This document shows positions 315-6,557 of a DNA stretch of 54,737 bases, one piece after another. The notes under the pieces were generated by a model. It did not search any database. It worked only from the letters and a program-made list of their open reading frames with translations, and was not told the origin of the DNA. Every line of letters starts with the position of its first letter. The first letter of the stretch is position 1. The DNA is from Dialister succinatiphilus YIT 11850 (GTDB taxonomy: Bacteria; Bacillota; Negativicutes; Veillonellales; Dialisteraceae), in contig NZ_JH591187.1 of assembly GCF_000242435.1 (NCBI RefSeq), positions 315,938 to 370,674 on the forward strand. Direction: 5' to 3'. Both the position numbers and the translations under genes were made by a program.

Positions 315-3071
315 GTGCAATTGTTTATTATTGCACTCATGGTTTTGGCCTTGTTCATGCCTGGGAACCTGGCTAAAATATGTGGAATGTTTTTTGGAAG
401 ATGGGACCTCACATTATATTTCCTGCTTGGGACTACAATATCTGTTTCTTTCCAGGGGTTTCATGTTACTGAATTTTTATATCATCTTACAAGTTTTCAG
501 TATGCGTTAATTGAGCTTGGATTTTTCATCCCTTTCGTAGTTAGAGAATACTATCAGGTAAAAAAAGGAAGGGCGTCAGACCAGAGAGTTCCGCATTCTT
601 CCTTCTTGGATGATGCTGCCTTATATGATGGTGCTGATTTACTACAGTATGGTCCATTAGCAGAAGATTTTGCAAATAAAATTTATGATAATAAATCGCC
701 AAACAGCATGATATGGGGAGTGGAGGGACCCTGGGGCATAGGGAAATCATCATTTCTTAATCTTTGCGAGGAAAGCTTAAGGAAAAATCATCCGGGAGAG
801 GTTATTGTTGTTCGATTTAATGCATTGAAGTATAGTGGCCAATATAAAGATATATCTATTCCCCTTTCGGATACATTAAGAGAAACAGTTTATAAAACAT
901 TAAAATGCCCGGAATTGAATATACTGCTTGCACAGTATCAGAGAATAGTCAAGGGAATAAGTTTTAATGTACTGGGAATATCCATGAACTTTACTCCTTT
1001 CCCGCAGAACGAATCAAAAGTTTTTACATATATCAGTGAAATTCTAAGAAATTCAAATAAAAAATTTATCTTTGCCATTGATGATCTTGATAGATTAAAT
1101 GGAGAGGAAGTCTACAGCCTTCTTTACTCCATCAAGGAAATTTTTGACATTCCTTTCATCAATTATGTCCTTTGTTACGACCTTGATAATCTTTCAAAAG
1201 AGATGGGGACTGATAAGACTGCACAAAAGAATGTGGAGTTTTTGGAGAAGTTTGTGCAAACGAAGATTTCTCTTTTTACGCGTAAAGACGTTATTCTTCG
1301 TGTTTTGGATGAAGATATCAAAGTACTGATGAAGGATACTGATTTGGATGTGGAAGCCAATAAAAAAGCTCTGAAAGGTGTTAGAAATATTTTAACATCT
1401 GATGATGCAGCTGAATATATTCCGTTTTTTGGTGATTTGAGAAAAGTTAAAAGATATGTCAATACACTGACTGCGCTTGACATTCAACGGGTAGATTTCC
1501 CTGATTTTGATTTTGATGAGAGACAACTGACTGAACTTATACTTTTATACATGTATTGCCCGATCGTTTTCAGAAAAATATATATGATGGAATCTTGGGG
1601 ATGGAGTAGGGAATATTATTCTTCACATTATAGTTATAGTGAAAGAAAAAATGTGTCTGGCTATAAAGTTAAGTCTGAAATTTGCAATATGCGTAAGCAA
1701 TACCCTAATGCAGCATATCTAATCAAGCAATTATTTGACGTAGAGGAATCAAGTGTTACTAAGATTAATGTTTCAAATCGAGCATTACTTGAAGTAAAAG
1801 ATAAAAGAGAGTTAATGGTGTATATGGATTTAATTGTTAATAGAATTAGTAGGTCAAAGTATGAGCAATCTAACTTTTATATTAACCGTATTCAGAATTA
1901 TTTGAATGGAAAACTGGTTATTGGTGATTTATTCGATGGGCTAATGTATGAGAGATATCATGAGAATCTGTGGCGTACTTTAGCGTACAATAATTTCCCA
2001 AATTTAAGCAGAGATAGAATAGATGAAATTGTTCATTGTGGCTTAAGTAAAAGAATGCGCTATTCGTATACTGGGGATAATTTCAACATTGGTCTGAGAA
2101 ATAAAGTATTGGGTTATTTCTTGGAGCTTTTTAAGTATCTAGATATCAGCAAGTATGAGAACGAAAATAAGCAATTTATTATTGAGAAAATCTTTGGCAG
2201 TCACGGGATTATTGATATAATCTCTCAAGAAAGTCGGGGAATTTTGGGAATATATGATCTACTGCAGTTCAGGCTTCGGTGCTGCTATAGTCGTCATGTG
2301 GCACCGGGGATGGATTCTAATATCTTTGTATATGGCATCATAGGTTCATATAAGAATCCGAAATTTTCTGTAGGTTCCCAAATTGATGTTTTGGAATTTA
2401 CAAAAGAAGAGATGCGAGTTCTTAGTCAAAAATGTTTTAGCATATTTAAGCAACGGTACATCGATAAGCATATTAATTTTATGAAGGAGATTCAGGAGCT
2501 GCCCCCTGCATTATTAGATGGTGATCAGTCATTGATTAGTCAGCAGGTTGTTGATTATTCCATGGTACAGGAAATAAAAGGCGGCATGACCACATTTATC
2601 ACTTATCAAATCGGAAACAATAGTCTTGGCGAAATGGGAGTCGGATGCGGATATTATGATGAAACCCGTTCAGATGATGGACAGGGCATTCGAAAAGCAT
2701 TTTCAAAGTACTTACTGGATGATGTATTTCAGGACTCTTATTATTGGCAGAGTTTCCTCTTGATTTTGGCAAAAAATGACCAGTCATTTAGAGAATCAGG
2801 GAAAATAGGCTGCGATAGAGTGATAGAGTGCATGGGTGAAGAGCAGCTTAAATCATGGTGGCTCACTAAGGGGAAAAATATGATGAAATTAAATCTAAAA
2901 ATCGCCAATTATAAACCTCAGGTAAATGGAATAAGCAGCCAGGAAATCTTAAGGATGTATAGTGAGTCCTTTGAAGAAAGGTTTAAGTGTAATCCTGTCA
3001 TTGCAGATGAACCTGCGGGGAAGGCTGATAATGTTAAGAAATCATCAGTAGAAACTGGCCCCTTGGATTGA
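315..3071 (+). CDS. KAP-family P-loop NTPase with N-terminal membrane segments
   Basis: Product of 918 residues from a GTG at 315. Hydrophobic N-terminus with about three membrane segments (roughly residues 1-15, 33-52, 64-77), then a Walker A motif GPWGIGKS (residues 138-145) and a Walker B motif FIFAIDDLDR (251-260), the pattern of KAP NTPases, in which membrane segments associate with the ATPase domain. The remaining 600 or so residues are not recognised. KAP proteins include phage-exclusion factors such as PifA, so a defence role is plausible given the neighbouring reverse transcriptase, but it is inference. The GTG has no good ribosome-binding site, and the same frame is open upstream to codon 243, directly at the IS boundary (stop TGA 240-242 lies in the IS). 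The true start may therefore have been removed by the insertion. Composition is strongly AT-rich. Confidence 0.8.
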   Translation: MQLFIIALMVLALFMPGNLAKICGMFFGRWDLTLYFLLGTTISVSFQGFHVTEFLYHLTSFQYALIELGFFIPFVVREYYQVKKGRASDQRVPHSSFLDDAALYDGADLLQYGPLAEDFANKIYDNKSPNSMIWGVEGPWGIGKSSFLNLCEESLRKNHPGEVIVVRFNALKYSGQYKDISIPLSDTLRETVYKTLKCPELNILLAQYQRIVKGISFNVLGISMNFTPFPQNESKVFTYISEILRNSNKKFIFAIDDLDRLNGEEVYSLLYSIKEIFDIPFINYVLCYDLDNLSKEMGTDKTAQKNVEFLEKFVQTKISLFTRKDVILRVLDEDIKVLMKDTDLDVEANKKALKGVRNILTSDDAAEYIPFFGDLRKVKRYVNTLTALDIQRVDFPDFDFDERQLTELILLYMYCPIVFRKIYMMESWGWSREYYSSHYSYSERKNVSGYKVKSEICNMRKQYPNAAYLIKQLFDVEESSVTKINVSNRALLEVKDKRELMVYMDLIVNRISRSKYEQSNFYINRIQNYLNGKLVIGDLFDGLMYERYHENLWRTLAYNNFPNLSRDRIDEIVHCGLSKRMRYSYTGDNFNIGLRNKVLGYFLELFKYLDISKYENENKQFIIEKIFGSHGIIDIISQESRGILGIYDLLQFRLRCCYSRHVAPGMDSNIFVYGIIGSYKNPKFSVGSQIDVLEFTKEEMRVLSQKCFSIFKQRYIDKHINFMKEIQELPPALLDGDQSLISQQVVDYSMVQEIKGGMTTFITYQIGNNSLGEMGVGCGYYDETRSDDGQGIRKAFSKYLLDDVFQDSYYWQSFLLILAKNDQSFRESGKIGCDRVIECMGEEQLKSWWLTKGKNMMKLNLKIANYKPQVNGISSQEILRMYSESFEERFKCNPVIADEPAGKADNVKKSSVETGPLD

Positions 3072-3432
3072 TTAGGTGATATTTATATGCTTCATGTCTC
3101 TTGAATAAAAGTGGAACACTAAATGGTAAATCATCGATATTTGCTAGCGGCAGGCAAATTTTACCAAGCAGCGTCGGGTTAAAATCGCCACTTGGAGGCG
3201 GGAAAATTCAGCCAATATTGGACAAAGAAAAACATCAATGAATATGACGCCGCTTCAGAGCTGCCATATGCTCGTAAGAACCAGGCGATGGGGAGCCAGA
3301 GAATACACGGGAGAGAGCCGGTCATTTCATTTGGATGATGCTCTTCGGCATTAGCTGCATTTCCAGGGGGGATTATGCTTATTTCTTAAGAATAGGGTGT
3401 GGCTCTTTGGTGCGTATCGTGAACAAAGATAG
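3072..3432. other. Non-coding gap after the KAP gene
   Basis: No convincing gene on either strand. The stretch is more GC-rich than its flanks around 3140-3330 and is probably decayed mobile-element DNA, because a transposase remnant follows immediately. Confidence 0.4.
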
Positions 3433-3707
3433 GTGGTTCTCATGGTGCGTAGTATTTTTGTTTCTGTTTCCGGTAATTTCGAGGGAAAGTTATTTGTACA
3501 GCTTCTAGCATTGATTTACCGTTCCTACATCAAAAAGCAAATGGACGAGAATGGACTGTACAAGAAGTATACGATGCAAACACTGCTGGATGATTTGGAT
3601 ATAATTGAGCTTTACAGGCAGTCTAAAAAGCTCATTATCTCCTTTTAGAGATAGCAGAGAAGCAGATGGCTCGGTATGATGCAATGGGAGTTGTAATTCC
3701 GAAATAG
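3433..3707 (+). pseudogene. C-terminal remnant of a DDE transposase, frame-broken
   Basis: Reading from about 3451, residues FEGKLFVQLLALIYRSYIKK and then LYKKYTMQTLLDDLDIIE match my recollection of the C-terminal end of IS1634/IS4-type DDE transposases. The frame stops at 3648, but the next frame continues with EIAEKQMARYDAMGVVIPK to TAG 3705-3707, which is the usual end of that family, so a frameshift lies near 3645. No catalytic part of the transposase remains upstream. It marks an old insertion between the KAP gene and the reverse transcriptase unit. Confidence 0.6.
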
Positions 3708-3790
3708 ATATAATTTCACGGGACTTCAGGCTCTTATGGCGCGTAATACTCACATACTTGCTGCATCCCTTTACTTCTCTTAAAATGCGA

Positions 3791-3818
3791 TTGAATTTAT
3801 TTCTACTTTGCGTATAAT
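3791..3818 (+). promoter_or_regulatory. Sigma-A promoter for the reverse transcriptase leader
   Basis: TTGAAT (3791-3796), 16-bp spacer, TATAAT (3813-3818). Transcription would begin near 3825, about 370 nt before the reverse transcriptase start codon, which leaves room for a long non-coding leader RNA. Confidence 0.6.
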
Positions 3819-3825
3819 ACAAATA

Positions 3826-4198
3826 AGGGCTATTTGATTTTTATATTTCATCTCGGTCCGGTGACGATGTCTTATGAGACATCGGATAGCTTTAACAATG
3901 TCAAGGCTCCTTTCAGAATGGTGGTAATCATCCTGAAACGTGAAAGAAATGCATTTCTTTCACGTTTCAGCGGACACTTGCTACGCGGTATGAATTCGAG
4001 CAAGGCTAGCAGGTACTCTGCAAACGCAGTAATTGCCTGTAATGTGGTGGCTGGTGATTCTGTCTCCAGTATATCACAGAGAATTAAACATGTTGGATAG
4101 GGGAGTAATCCGGTTTGCTTTTCGTCCCATTAGCTATAAGGATCTATCCACCTTGGCTAGTGGGATTTTTAAGTGGGGCTTATGTAAGGATGTTGCAT
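3826..4198 (+). ncRNA. Structured leader RNA of the reverse transcriptase (candidate DRT ncRNA)
   Basis: Between the promoter and the reverse transcriptase start lie five consecutive hairpins: CGATGTCT/AGACATCG with a 4-nt loop (3865-3884); a 16-bp stem with TGCA loop (3934-3969); CTTGCT/AGCAAG (3977-4004); CAGG/CCTG enclosing CTGC/GCAG (4010-4039); and CTGGTGAT/ATCACAG with one bulge (4051-4079). An RNA upstream of the RT gene serves as template in several antiviral reverse transcriptase systems, notably DRT2, where a template is copied repeatedly into concatemeric cDNA. The frame 3834-4100 has no internal stop. The RNA assignment is inference from structure and position; ends are approximate. 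Confidence 0.5.
3934..3969. repeat. 36-bp perfect palindrome
   Basis: Starts TGAAACGTGAAAG, is centred on ATGCAT and is identical to its reverse complement over 36 bases. As RNA it forms a 16-bp stem with a TGCA loop. No T-run follows, so it is not an ordinary terminator. It is the strongest element of the leader described at 3826-4198. Confidence 0.85.
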
Positions 4199-5608
4199 AT
4201 GGATGCAGATATCGAAATTAGAAAAGAAATCGAAGGGAAAAATATTTCTTATATCCATTTTGATCGTAGAATAAAACTGACAAATCATTTGTGGTGTTGC
4301 ATTACAAATAAACAGTGGGTGCTAAGGCATGGTTTTTATCCTTTTATTCATTTTAAACGGCCTAAGTACCATAAGTCTTGGTCGACGGATTCTTCAGGAA
4401 AACGAATTTGGAAAGACGAAGGGCCAAAATATAGGGATATACTCTATGCAGCACATAAAGATGCATGGATTTACAGATACTATGGAGCCCTGTTTAACAG
4501 AAAGTATAACCGGTATTTAGGGAATAGGAATATTGATGATTGTTCTATTGCGTATAGGACAAACAAGAAGGGAAAATCAAATATTTCCTTTGCAGAGGAA
4601 GCGTTGGCTTTTATTAAGTTCCATAAGCCTTGTTATGTTATCATAGGTGATTTTACACATTTTTTTGATTTTCTTGATCATGCTTACCTGTTGAACCAGA
4701 TTCGTTACGTTTTGGACAGCCAGTATATTCCTGATGATATATATTATGTATTGAACTCTCTCCTGCATTACAGTTATGTTGATTACGAAGGGATTACTTC
4801 CTATAAAGGGATGACACATCAACAGCTTTGCCAGTGTCAAACAGTTTTGACAAATCAGGAATTCCGGATTCTCTCAAGAAAGAAACAGAGAGAATCTAAA
4901 GACGACAAGTTTATTATAAAGGTAAATAGAGAACATTTCGGTATTCCGCAGGGGTCACCCATGAGTGGGGTACTGGCGAATATCTATATGATTCAATTTG
5001 ATGAAAAGATTTTTGAATTAGTGCAGTCGTATCATGGAATATATCGCCGTTATTCTGATGATTTTATTATTGCTATTCCGGAAAAGTATATAACGGAAGA
5101 ACAATATCAACAAATGATTCATCAGTTGCAGGAAATTTTTAACCAGAGAAGTACAAATACAGGAAAGTATCTGGTTAAATTATCACCGGAAAAAACTAAG
5201 AAATATCGTGTTAGTGCGAACTTGATTATTTACAATGAGCAAAAGGAGCATGGTATCATTTCCTTTTTAGGGTTTTCATACGATGGAAAGAGTGTTTATA
5301 TTAAAGACAGCTCTGTAAGGCGTTATTATAGTCATGCTTATAGTAAGGCTGATCACGTTGTGAAGCAAAATGCCCAGCTTAGCCAGCTTAAGAAGAATAA
5401 AAGGAGAACTACAAATTTATATACGTTGTATAGCATATCTGGATTGTATAGAAATAGCAGTAAGTCTAAGCGAGGATCAAATTTTCCGGTGTATTCCCAA
5501 AGGGCACATTTTATCTTCCAAAAGAATTTCAAGAGTGAAAATCAAACCGGCCTCGTAGCCCAAAGGCATATGAGACAATTAAGAAAACGACTTAATTCCC
5601 CAAAATAG
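4199..5608 (+). CDS. Reverse transcriptase of the unknown-group/DRT (defence) class
   Basis: Product of 469 residues. The frame opens earlier, but ATG 4199 has AAGGA eight bases upstream and is preferred. RT motifs in order: ILYAAHKDAWIYRYYG-type motif 0; IIGDFTHFFDF with catalytic Asp at about 151; GIPQGSPMSG (PQG at 250-252); RRYSDDFIIAI (YSDD at 285-288, the catalytic pair). There is no maturase domain, so it is not a group II intron RT, and no retron VTG motif was seen. The N-terminal 100 residues and a basic C-terminus extend the core. Size, single-gene layout and the structured RNA upstream are closest to what I know of DRT2 (UG2) antiviral reverse transcriptases, but subclass needs a phylogeny. 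AT-rich composition and neighbouring transposase debris suggest horizontal acquisition. Confidence 0.8.
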   Translation: MDADIEIRKEIEGKNISYIHFDRRIKLTNHLWCCITNKQWVLRHGFYPFIHFKRPKYHKSWSTDSSGKRIWKDEGPKYRDILYAAHKDAWIYRYYGALFNRKYNRYLGNRNIDDCSIAYRTNKKGKSNISFAEEALAFIKFHKPCYVIIGDFTHFFDFLDHAYLLNQIRYVLDSQYIPDDIYYVLNSLLHYSYVDYEGITSYKGMTHQQLCQCQTVLTNQEFRILSRKKQRESKDDKFIIKVNREHFGIPQGSPMSGVLANIYMIQFDEKIFELVQSYHGIYRRYSDDFIIAIPEKYITEEQYQQMIHQLQEIFNQRSTNTGKYLVKLSPEKTKKYRVSANLIIYNEQKEHGIISFLGFSYDGKSVYIKDSSVRRYYSHAYSKADHVVKQNAQLSQLKKNKRRTTNLYTLYSISGLYRNSSKSKRGSNFPVYSQRAHFIFQKNFKSENQTGLVAQRHMRQLRKRLNSPK

Positions 5609-5860: not shown

Positions 5861-6421
5861 ATGGACCAAGATTCTAAGCATCTTTCTTCACAGGATGAGC
5901 AGAAGGGAAAGGCCAACACTCCGAATGATAAAAGTATTGCTATTATTGTTGAAGCAGCAGCGAAAGAGTATGCTCGTCAGACTGAAACATACGATAAAAT
6001 CTACCAAAGGTCCAGTTTTGCTTTGGCTGCTTGCGGTATTTTTATGGCTGTAATGGCAAGGTTTATCAATACAAACACTGTGTTGAATGCGTTGAAATCA
6101 ATTTTTGTAATTGGTGTACTTGACAGGACTTTCTTTTTAGGGACCGGCTTCCTTATGCTTCTTATCTCTATGATGATGTTTCTTTGGCTCTTACGCGGTA
6201 AGCGTATGGAAGCTTTGGGTATTGAACTAGTGGAGAATTTGGATGTAGAAAATAGGGGAGAGATTGAGTCTTATAAATGGCTGAAAAATGGATATATTAA
6301 GGCTATCAAATCCATAAAGATTAAATCGTCTGTAAAGCAGAAACAGTATAATAGGGCTCTGAATGTCCTCCTCATATCTTTAGTTTTGTTTGCAATCAGC
6401 TTTCTTGTACAGGAGGTATAA
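5861..6421 (+). CDS. Small membrane protein, SLATT-like architecture
   Basis: Product of 186 residues; ATG preceded by GAGGT with suitable spacing. About 50 soluble N-terminal residues, two closely spaced membrane helices (roughly 54-72 and 88-111), a charged segment of about 50 residues, and a third hydrophobic stretch at the C-terminus (about 166-183). Two helices followed by a soluble helical domain resemble SLATT and other two-helix effectors found in bacterial conflict systems, but I cannot confirm the family. Its stop codon is one base from the start of the next small gene, whose ribosome-binding site lies within the last codons of this one, so the two are translated together. The same AT-rich accessory segment contains the reverse transcriptase. 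Confidence 0.65.
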   Translation: MDQDSKHLSSQDEQKGKANTPNDKSIAIIVEAAAKEYARQTETYDKIYQRSSFALAACGIFMAVMARFINTNTVLNALKSIFVIGVLDRTFFLGTGFLMLLISMMMFLWLLRGKRMEALGIELVENLDVENRGEIESYKWLKNGYIKAIKSIKIKSSVKQKQYNRALNVLLISLVLFAISFLVQEV

Positions 6422-6422
6422 A

Positions 6423-6557
6423 ATGAATTTCTTTGTGCGTTCGGATGAGGATAGTGATAAAGATACCGGTTCCAGCACTACGGGTTATCCTAGTGAAAGT
6501 ACGATTATCGAAACACGTAGTGGAGATAAAAGTGGACATAGTTCCAGAAATAGATAA
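6423..6557 (+). CDS. 44-residue hydrophilic protein, translationally coupled to the membrane protein
   Basis: ATG 6423-6425 to TAA 6555-6557. GGAGG sits 6-8 bases upstream inside the end of the preceding gene and the two genes are separated by one base, a classic coupling arrangement. The product starts MNFFVRSDEDSDKD and is rich in Ser, Thr, Asp and Gly, with no hydrophobic segment and probably disordered. No family recognised. It could be a partner or inhibitor of the membrane protein; that is inference. Confidence 0.55.
   Translation: MNFFVRSDEDSDKDTGSSTTGYPSESTIIETRSGDKSGHSSRNR

What the first reader, a model, noticed from the sequence alone, without database searches (positions are those of the whole stretch)
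3791..5608. Candidate DRT-type antiviral reverse transcriptase with a structured leader RNA
A 469-residue reverse transcriptase with GDFTHFFDF, PQG and YSDD motifs stands alone behind a promoter (3791-3818) and about 370 nt of leader containing five successive hairpins. It is neither a group II intron RT nor recognisably a retron. In antiviral DRT systems an RNA adjacent to the RT gene is essential, and this layout fits. Seen: motifs, promoter, hairpins. Inferred: DRT class and defence role.
Basis: partly seen in the sequence, partly recalled or inferred. Interest (0 to 1): 0.85.

Follow-up and report, generated by a model that had tools for sequence, protein, structure and literature searches.

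The report
DRT2 defence system hiding a gene
This is a bacterial antiviral reverse transcriptase (type DRT2) with an RNA in front of it that appears to hide a repeat-encoded toxin gene, which becomes readable only when the enzyme copies the RNA round and round; its relatives across the Bacillota do the same with different 'jump' sequences from those described so far.

Summary
The reverse transcriptase (RT) at 4199-5608 is a DRT2 (UG2) RT: PADLOC Drt2 E=5e-111, and the predicted fold best matches the solved K. pneumoniae DRT2 (9c0i, E=9e-30). The leader is a DRT2 ncRNA. A covariance model trained on 21 relatives without the window hits it at 4083-4172 (E=2.4e-4). Its pseudoknot and tower helix covary strongly (22 of 24 pairs, pseudoknot 7 of 7).

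Copying 3892-4083 (192 nt) with jumps between two TTAA copies would rebuild TTGACA-N17-TATACT across the junction and leave one endless antisense frame of 64 codons, predicted helical.

The same logic holds across Bacillota DRT2s, where the Tang 2024 preprint found Neo hard to annotate. Repeat lengths locked by the junction promoter are multiples of three in 24/31 (p=6e-7), and all 24 are open (3.7 expected). Full criteria are met by 34/69 leaders versus 0.05 in shuffles. Jump motifs differ by lineage (ATTG, GTGA, GTAT-like; ACA in the proteobacterial clade).

So this is a known defence class with a variant jump signal. cDNA synthesis, Neo translation and defence were not tested. The window's neo lacks the usual ATG.

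The parts
3791..3818 (+). promoter of ncRNA and RT (TTGAAT-N16-TATAAT)
   Evidence: same position as promoters in homologous leaders
3826..4172 (+). DRT2 ncRNA (ends approximate)
   Evidence: fold z=-7.35; 3' scaffold found by model R1 trained without the window
3826..3893 (+). 5' handle hairpin (MFE; compact alternative 3865-3884)
   Evidence: homologues have a stem of 6 or more pairs just upstream of the -35 box
3892..3895 (+). jump site 1, TTAA
   Evidence: 4-nt identity to 4084-4087 at exactly 192 nt
3892..4083 (-). template; its reverse complement is the 192-nt neo repeat unit (64 codons, one endless open frame: LCDILETESPATTLQAITAFAEYLLALLEFIPRSKCPLKRERNAFLSRFRMITTILKGALTLLI)
   Evidence: all criteria met by 2 of 20,000 shuffles of the leader
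3899..3904 (-). -35 element TTGACA of the junction promoter
4068..4073 (-). -10 element TATACT, preceded by TGA, of the junction promoter; 17 bp from the -35 only after a 192-nt jump
3907..3913 (-). candidate ribosome-binding site AAAGGAG, 8 nt before an in-frame TTG (3898-3896)
   Evidence: weaker than the RBS-ATG of most homologues
4084..4087 (+). jump site 2, TTAA
4095..4100 (+). pseudoknot 5' strand GGATAG
4124..4136 (+). tower helix 5' arm GTCCCATTAGCTA
4144..4149 (+). pseudoknot 3' strand CTATCC in the tower loop
4154..4166 (+). tower helix 3' arm TGGCTAGTGGGAT
4199..5608 (+). DRT2 reverse transcriptase, 469 aa
   Evidence: PADLOC Drt2 5e-111; PDB 9c0i by sequence 2e-36 and by fold 8.7e-30

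Best explanation
A DRT2 (UG2) abortive-infection system. The RT binds the pseudoknotted ncRNA transcribed just upstream of it. It copies the template 3892-4083; on reaching the 5' end, the cDNA end (...TTAA) re-pairs with the second TTAA at 4084-4087, and copying starts again. This gives head-to-tail 192-nt repeats. Once made double-stranded after a phage trigger, each junction carries a strong promoter (TTGACA-N17-TATACT), and the transcript encodes a stop-less repetitive, mostly helical protein (Neo, 64 aa per repeat) that halts growth. Shown here: RT class, ncRNA scaffold, repeat length, open frame, junction promoter and their conservation in relatives. Inferred from the K. pneumoniae system: cDNA synthesis, second-strand synthesis, transcription, translation, toxicity and defence.
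For: RT: Drt2 models 5e-111 and 1.4e-70, next best RT_UG39 4e-18; all 38 aligned members match Drt2; fold to 9c0i TM 0.76/0.83, next best E 6e-12. ncRNA: 97.2% of cells paired, 22/24 pairs with double changes, sliding control 30-48%; independent hit on the window E=2.4e-4. Neo in window: N=192, open frame, 4-nt jump homology, 17-bp promoter; 2/20,000 shuffles; confident helical AlphaFold model from a single sequence, pLDDT 85.5. Neo in relatives: N multiple of 3 in 24/31 with frame ignored, 24/24 open vs 3.7 expected, jump homology peaks at the predicted offset; 34/69 vs 0.05 under full criteria, N mod 3 split 34:2:2; hydrophobicity 0.76 vs 0.04. Positive control: three proteobacterial-type leaders give 117 nt with ACA, the published values.
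Against: The window's neo frame lacks the ATG after the junction seen in most relatives; the best start is a TTG with AAAGGAG. NCBIfam's Drt2 cut-off is not reached (291 vs 390 bits). In the window the sense frame of the template is also open; in relatives it is open in only 10/60. Codon-position bias between related templates is weak (p=0.04). The published ACA jump would give 181 or 193 nt here and break the frame. 10 of 70 leaders gave no neo call.
Confidence: 0.85

Rival explanations
1. A DRT2 system whose effector is the repetitive DNA itself, or another product, and not a translated Neo; the open frame is incidental.
For: No canonical ATG in the window frame; the sense frame is open too; weak synonymous bias.
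Against: Length multiple of three and openness hold across relatives far above chance; hydrophobic bias as published for Neo; confident helical model.
Confidence: 0.08
2. A decaying DRT2 copy: RT and ncRNA intact but neo expression lost.
For: Missing ATG; -10 is TATACT, not TATAAT; no relative within the genus.
Against: RT intact with all catalytic motifs; scaffold, -35, 17-bp spacing, frame and jump homology are all kept, and a 64-codon open frame is expected in only 7% of shuffled templates.
Confidence: 0.06
3. Another RT class (group II intron RT, retron, AbiA/K/P2, DRT9 or DRT10-like with the downstream membrane protein as effector).
For: An ORF with two hydrophobic stretches lies downstream at 5861-6421.
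Against: All scores are far below Drt2; group II RTs separate from it in the tree (long branches); the ORF has no SLATT match and is absent beside other DRT2s.
Confidence: 0.01

Closest known systems
DRT2 of Klebsiella pneumoniae (KpnDRT2; PDB 9c0i; PMC12039810, PMC11100668)
   Same: Lone RT behind a pseudoknotted ncRNA; RT fold; template between handle and pseudoknot; junction promoter with 17-bp spacing; stop-less antisense frame; hydrophobic helical repeat.
   Different: Only about 25% RT identity (24% in the structural alignment); 192-nt instead of 120-nt repeat (64 vs 40 aa); TTAA instead of ACA jump homology; TTG with AAAGGAG near the repeat end instead of an ATG after the junction.
Bacillota DRT2 relatives found here (e.g. 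L002, L003, L041, L061, L109)
   Same: RT 32-40% identical over the full length; handle, pseudoknot, tower, junction promoter, open frame with repeat a multiple of three.
   Different: Jump homology ATTG, GTAT, GTGA and others; repeats 117-204 nt; most carry RBS-ATG in the neo frame.
DRT10 (PMC12632851) and DRT9 (PMC12483538)
   Same: RT plus ncRNA; repetitive or homopolymer cDNA as part of defence.
   Different: Other RT classes; DRT10 makes tandem-repeat DNA and DRT9 homopolymer DNA, both protein-primed (abstracts); no junction promoter or Neo is described there as far as read.

Membership tests
DRT2 | RT of the UG2/Drt2 clade | tested here: met
   PADLOC Drt2 5e-111, next family 4e-18; fold best match 9c0i; NCBIfam Drt2 is the top model but below its curated cut-off, 291 vs 390
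DRT2 | YxDD catalytic motif intact | tested here: met
   YSDD; D287, D288 and D151 invariant in the alignment
DRT2 | pseudoknotted structured ncRNA directly upstream | tested here: met
DRT2 | repeat unit divisible by three with a single endless antisense frame | tested here: met
   192 nt, one open frame
DRT2 | sigma70 promoter rebuilt across the repeat junction | tested here: met
   TTGACA-N17-TATACT
DRT2 subgroup close to KpnDRT2 | ACA-1/ACA-2 jump motifs | tested here: not met
   ACA pairs give 181 or 193 nt, out of frame; TTAA fits instead. Other Bacillota DRT2 also lack it, so it marks the Kpn subgroup, not the whole Drt2 family.
DRT2 | RBS and start codon in neo just after the junction | tested here: inconclusive
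   no ATG there; TTG with AAAGGAG elsewhere in frame
DRT2 | rolling-circle cDNA, Neo protein, phage defence | not testable with these tools
   needs wet-lab work
retron | retron-class RT | tested here: not met
   retron models at best 1.2e-9 in PADLOC; NCBIfam retron models far below their cut-offs
group II intron | group II intron RT/maturase | tested here: not met
   TIGR04416 65 bits vs cut-off 300; separates from group II RTs in the tree; no intron RNA in the Rfam scan

The most novel reading that the evidence does not exclude
Bacillota DRT2 systems, this one included, broadly make Neo genes by rolling-circle reverse transcription, but the jump signal is not ACA. It is any short self-homology at the exact repeat offset, free to drift between lineages (ATTG, GTGA, GTAT, TTAA), and repeats reach 204 nt. 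This would explain why Neo was hard to annotate outside the Kpn group.
Probability: 0.8. Interest if true: 0.68.

Novelty: new variant of a known kind. Interest (0 to 1): 0.6.

Why it matters
The authors of the Tang preprint left open whether divergent DRT2 clades use another mechanism because Neo was hard to annotate there (PMC11100668). A rule that ignores ACA and locks on to the junction promoter recovers the hidden gene in dozens of Bacillota and predicts exact repeat lengths and junctions, each directly testable. It widens the set of genes that exist only after reverse transcription, shows which part of the jump mechanism is fixed (homology at an offset) and which drifts (its letters), and gives many diverse Neo proteins for asking what Neo does. 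I could not check whether the final Science version of that paper or its supplement already covers these clades.

Tried and rejected
DRT10/SLATT idea from the downstream membrane ORF: no SLATT match, not conserved. ACA-based template: wrong lengths. The search for related loci with the single protein found nothing; the alignment query worked. Searching the genome for a second ncRNA copy with R1 at the strict threshold returned nothing, not even the window copy, so it is uninformative. Empty-site comparison in a same-genus genome failed: no synteny. Synonymous-substitution test of neo gave only a weak signal (p=0.04). The transposase-remnant idea for 3072-3790 got no Pfam match. The Neo model has no significant PDB match.

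Full report
OBSERVATION. The window carries an RT ORF at 4199-5608 (469 aa) with the motifs described, a TTGAAT-N16-TATAAT site at 3791-3818 and a 373-nt leader that folds far better than shuffles (z=-7.35). The promoter hexamers alone are not more frequent than chance. The five-hairpin description is only approximate.

CLASS. PADLOC Drt2 models score 5e-111 and 1.4e-70, and the next family (RT_UG39) scores 4e-18. NCBIfam Drt2 is the best model but below its curated cut-off (291 vs 390 bits), as expected for a divergent member. By sequence the closest solved structures are K. pneumoniae DRT2 (9c0i and others, 2e-36). An AlphaFold model built on 38 relatives (pLDDT 88.5) matches 9c0i at E=8.7e-30 (TM 0.76/0.83); the next match is DRT9 at 6e-12. 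In a tree of 77 RTs the window groups inside a large Bacillota DRT2 clade, apart from group II intron RTs and from the ACA-type group, although its exact sister is weakly supported and its branch is long.

RELATIVES. The RT has no relative in its genus among those held and only 35-39% identical ones in its order. An alignment query found 80 loci in GTDB genomes and 9 in viral contigs; three more came from phage records and 27 from plasmids.

ncRNA. Leaders of relatives share a layout: promoter, handle hairpin, TGTCAA, variable template, ATTATA-like box, then a scaffold in which a 5-8 nt segment pairs with the loop of a 10-13 bp tower helix, i.e. a pseudoknot. On 21 relatives without the window, 97.2% of cells pair, 22 of 24 pairs show changes on both sides (0/500 shuffles reach this), and all 7 pseudoknot pairs covary with 100% paired. 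Sliding the partners drops pairing to 30-48%. A covariance model from these 21 finds the window at 4083-4172 as its best hit (28.5 bits, E=2.4e-4; next 15.7 bits) although the pseudoknot is not modelled, and finds many held-out relatives. This is the architecture of the KpnDRT2 ncRNA as published (PMC12039810).

HIDDEN GENE. In KpnDRT2 the template is copied repeatedly; the junction rebuilds a sigma70 promoter with 17-bp spacing, and the antisense concatemer has one stop-less frame whose length is a multiple of three. Jumping there uses ACA motifs. In the window, ACA pairs give 181 or 193 nt and break the frame. If instead the -35 (TTGACA, - strand 3904-3899) and -10 (TATACT, - strand 4073-4068) are required to be 17 bp apart across the junction, the repeat length is fixed at 192 nt without choosing a jump point. 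192 is a multiple of three; one antisense frame is open over all 64 codons; and a TTAA identity sits at exactly that offset (3892-3895 and 4084-4087), placing the template at 3892-4083. All four conditions together occur in 2 of 20,000 dinucleotide shuffles of the leader. AlphaFold on the antisense segment alone gives a confident three-helix model (pLDDT 85.5), in line with the helical Neo proposed for KpnDRT2.

TEST IN RELATIVES. Taking only leaders where the promoter boxes give a unique choice and ignoring reading frame, the repeat length is a multiple of three in 24 of 31 (p=6e-7); all 24 are open where 3.7 are expected; and jump homology of 4 nt or more peaks at the predicted offset (15 leaders, against 0-6 at other offsets). 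Requiring promoter plus homology but not frame, lengths fall 34:2:2 into the three classes modulo 3. The full criteria are met by 34 of 69 non-redundant leaders against 0.05 in shuffles. Positive control: three viral-contig loci of the Kpn type yield 117 nt and ACA, as published. The neo frames are hydrophobic (mean 0.76, shuffled 0.04), and the sense frame is open in only 10 of 60. In Bacillota the homology is ATTG in 17 sequences, GTGA in four and GTAT-like in seven, clustered on the RT tree.

LIMITS. The window's neo frame has no ATG where most relatives have RBS-ATG; the best start is TTG with AAAGGAG at the end of the repeat. Synonymous bias between related templates is weak. 10 of 70 leaders gave no call at all. 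In the table of selected relatives, homology and frame were used to choose among alternatives, so only searches are free of that bias. The criteria for the window's own shuffle test were set after the window had been looked at; the relatives are the independent test. No experiment was done; triggering by phage, translation and toxicity are carried over from KpnDRT2.

CONCLUSION. This is a DRT2 system (new member, divergent clade) and a variant in its jump signal and repeat length. It answers, in silico, a point left open in PMC11100668: that divergent DRT2 clades might use other mechanisms because Neo was hard to annotate.

Noticed in passing
window 315-3071: 918-aa KAP-family P-loop NTPase (Pfam 2.6e-37), weakly PifA-like in PADLOC (1.4e-31); a possible further phage-exclusion gene just upstream of DRT2, not conserved beside other DRT2s.
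   Followed up: partly
window 5861-6421 and 6423-6557: 186-aa protein with two hydrophobic stretches, no family match, followed by a 44-codon ORF; function unknown.
   Followed up: partly
window 3072-3790: Non-coding stretch with broken frames that read like the end of a degenerate transposase, but no Pfam match.
   Followed up: partly
window 3933-3970 (approximate): The template contains a perfect inverted repeat GAAACGTGAAAGAAATGCATTTCTTTCACGTTTC, so the neo DNA would also form a 17-bp hairpin in each repeat; its role is unexplained.
   Followed up: no
L005 3700-4050 (reverse strand): A relative from the window's order has an IS30-like element inserted about 33 codons into its DRT2 RT, leaving the ncRNA scaffold and RT start upstream of it.
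   Followed up: partly
L130 2924-4760 and 12826-14156 (same genome, upstream of the window): A PDC-M12A/B candidate defence pair (1e-116, 4e-45) and a phage holin plus GH25 lysin lie upstream, suggesting that DRT2 sits beside a prophage and other defence genes.
   Followed up: partly
L130 15236-15938: About 700 bases directly upstream of the window are masked (N) in the held genome.
   Followed up: no
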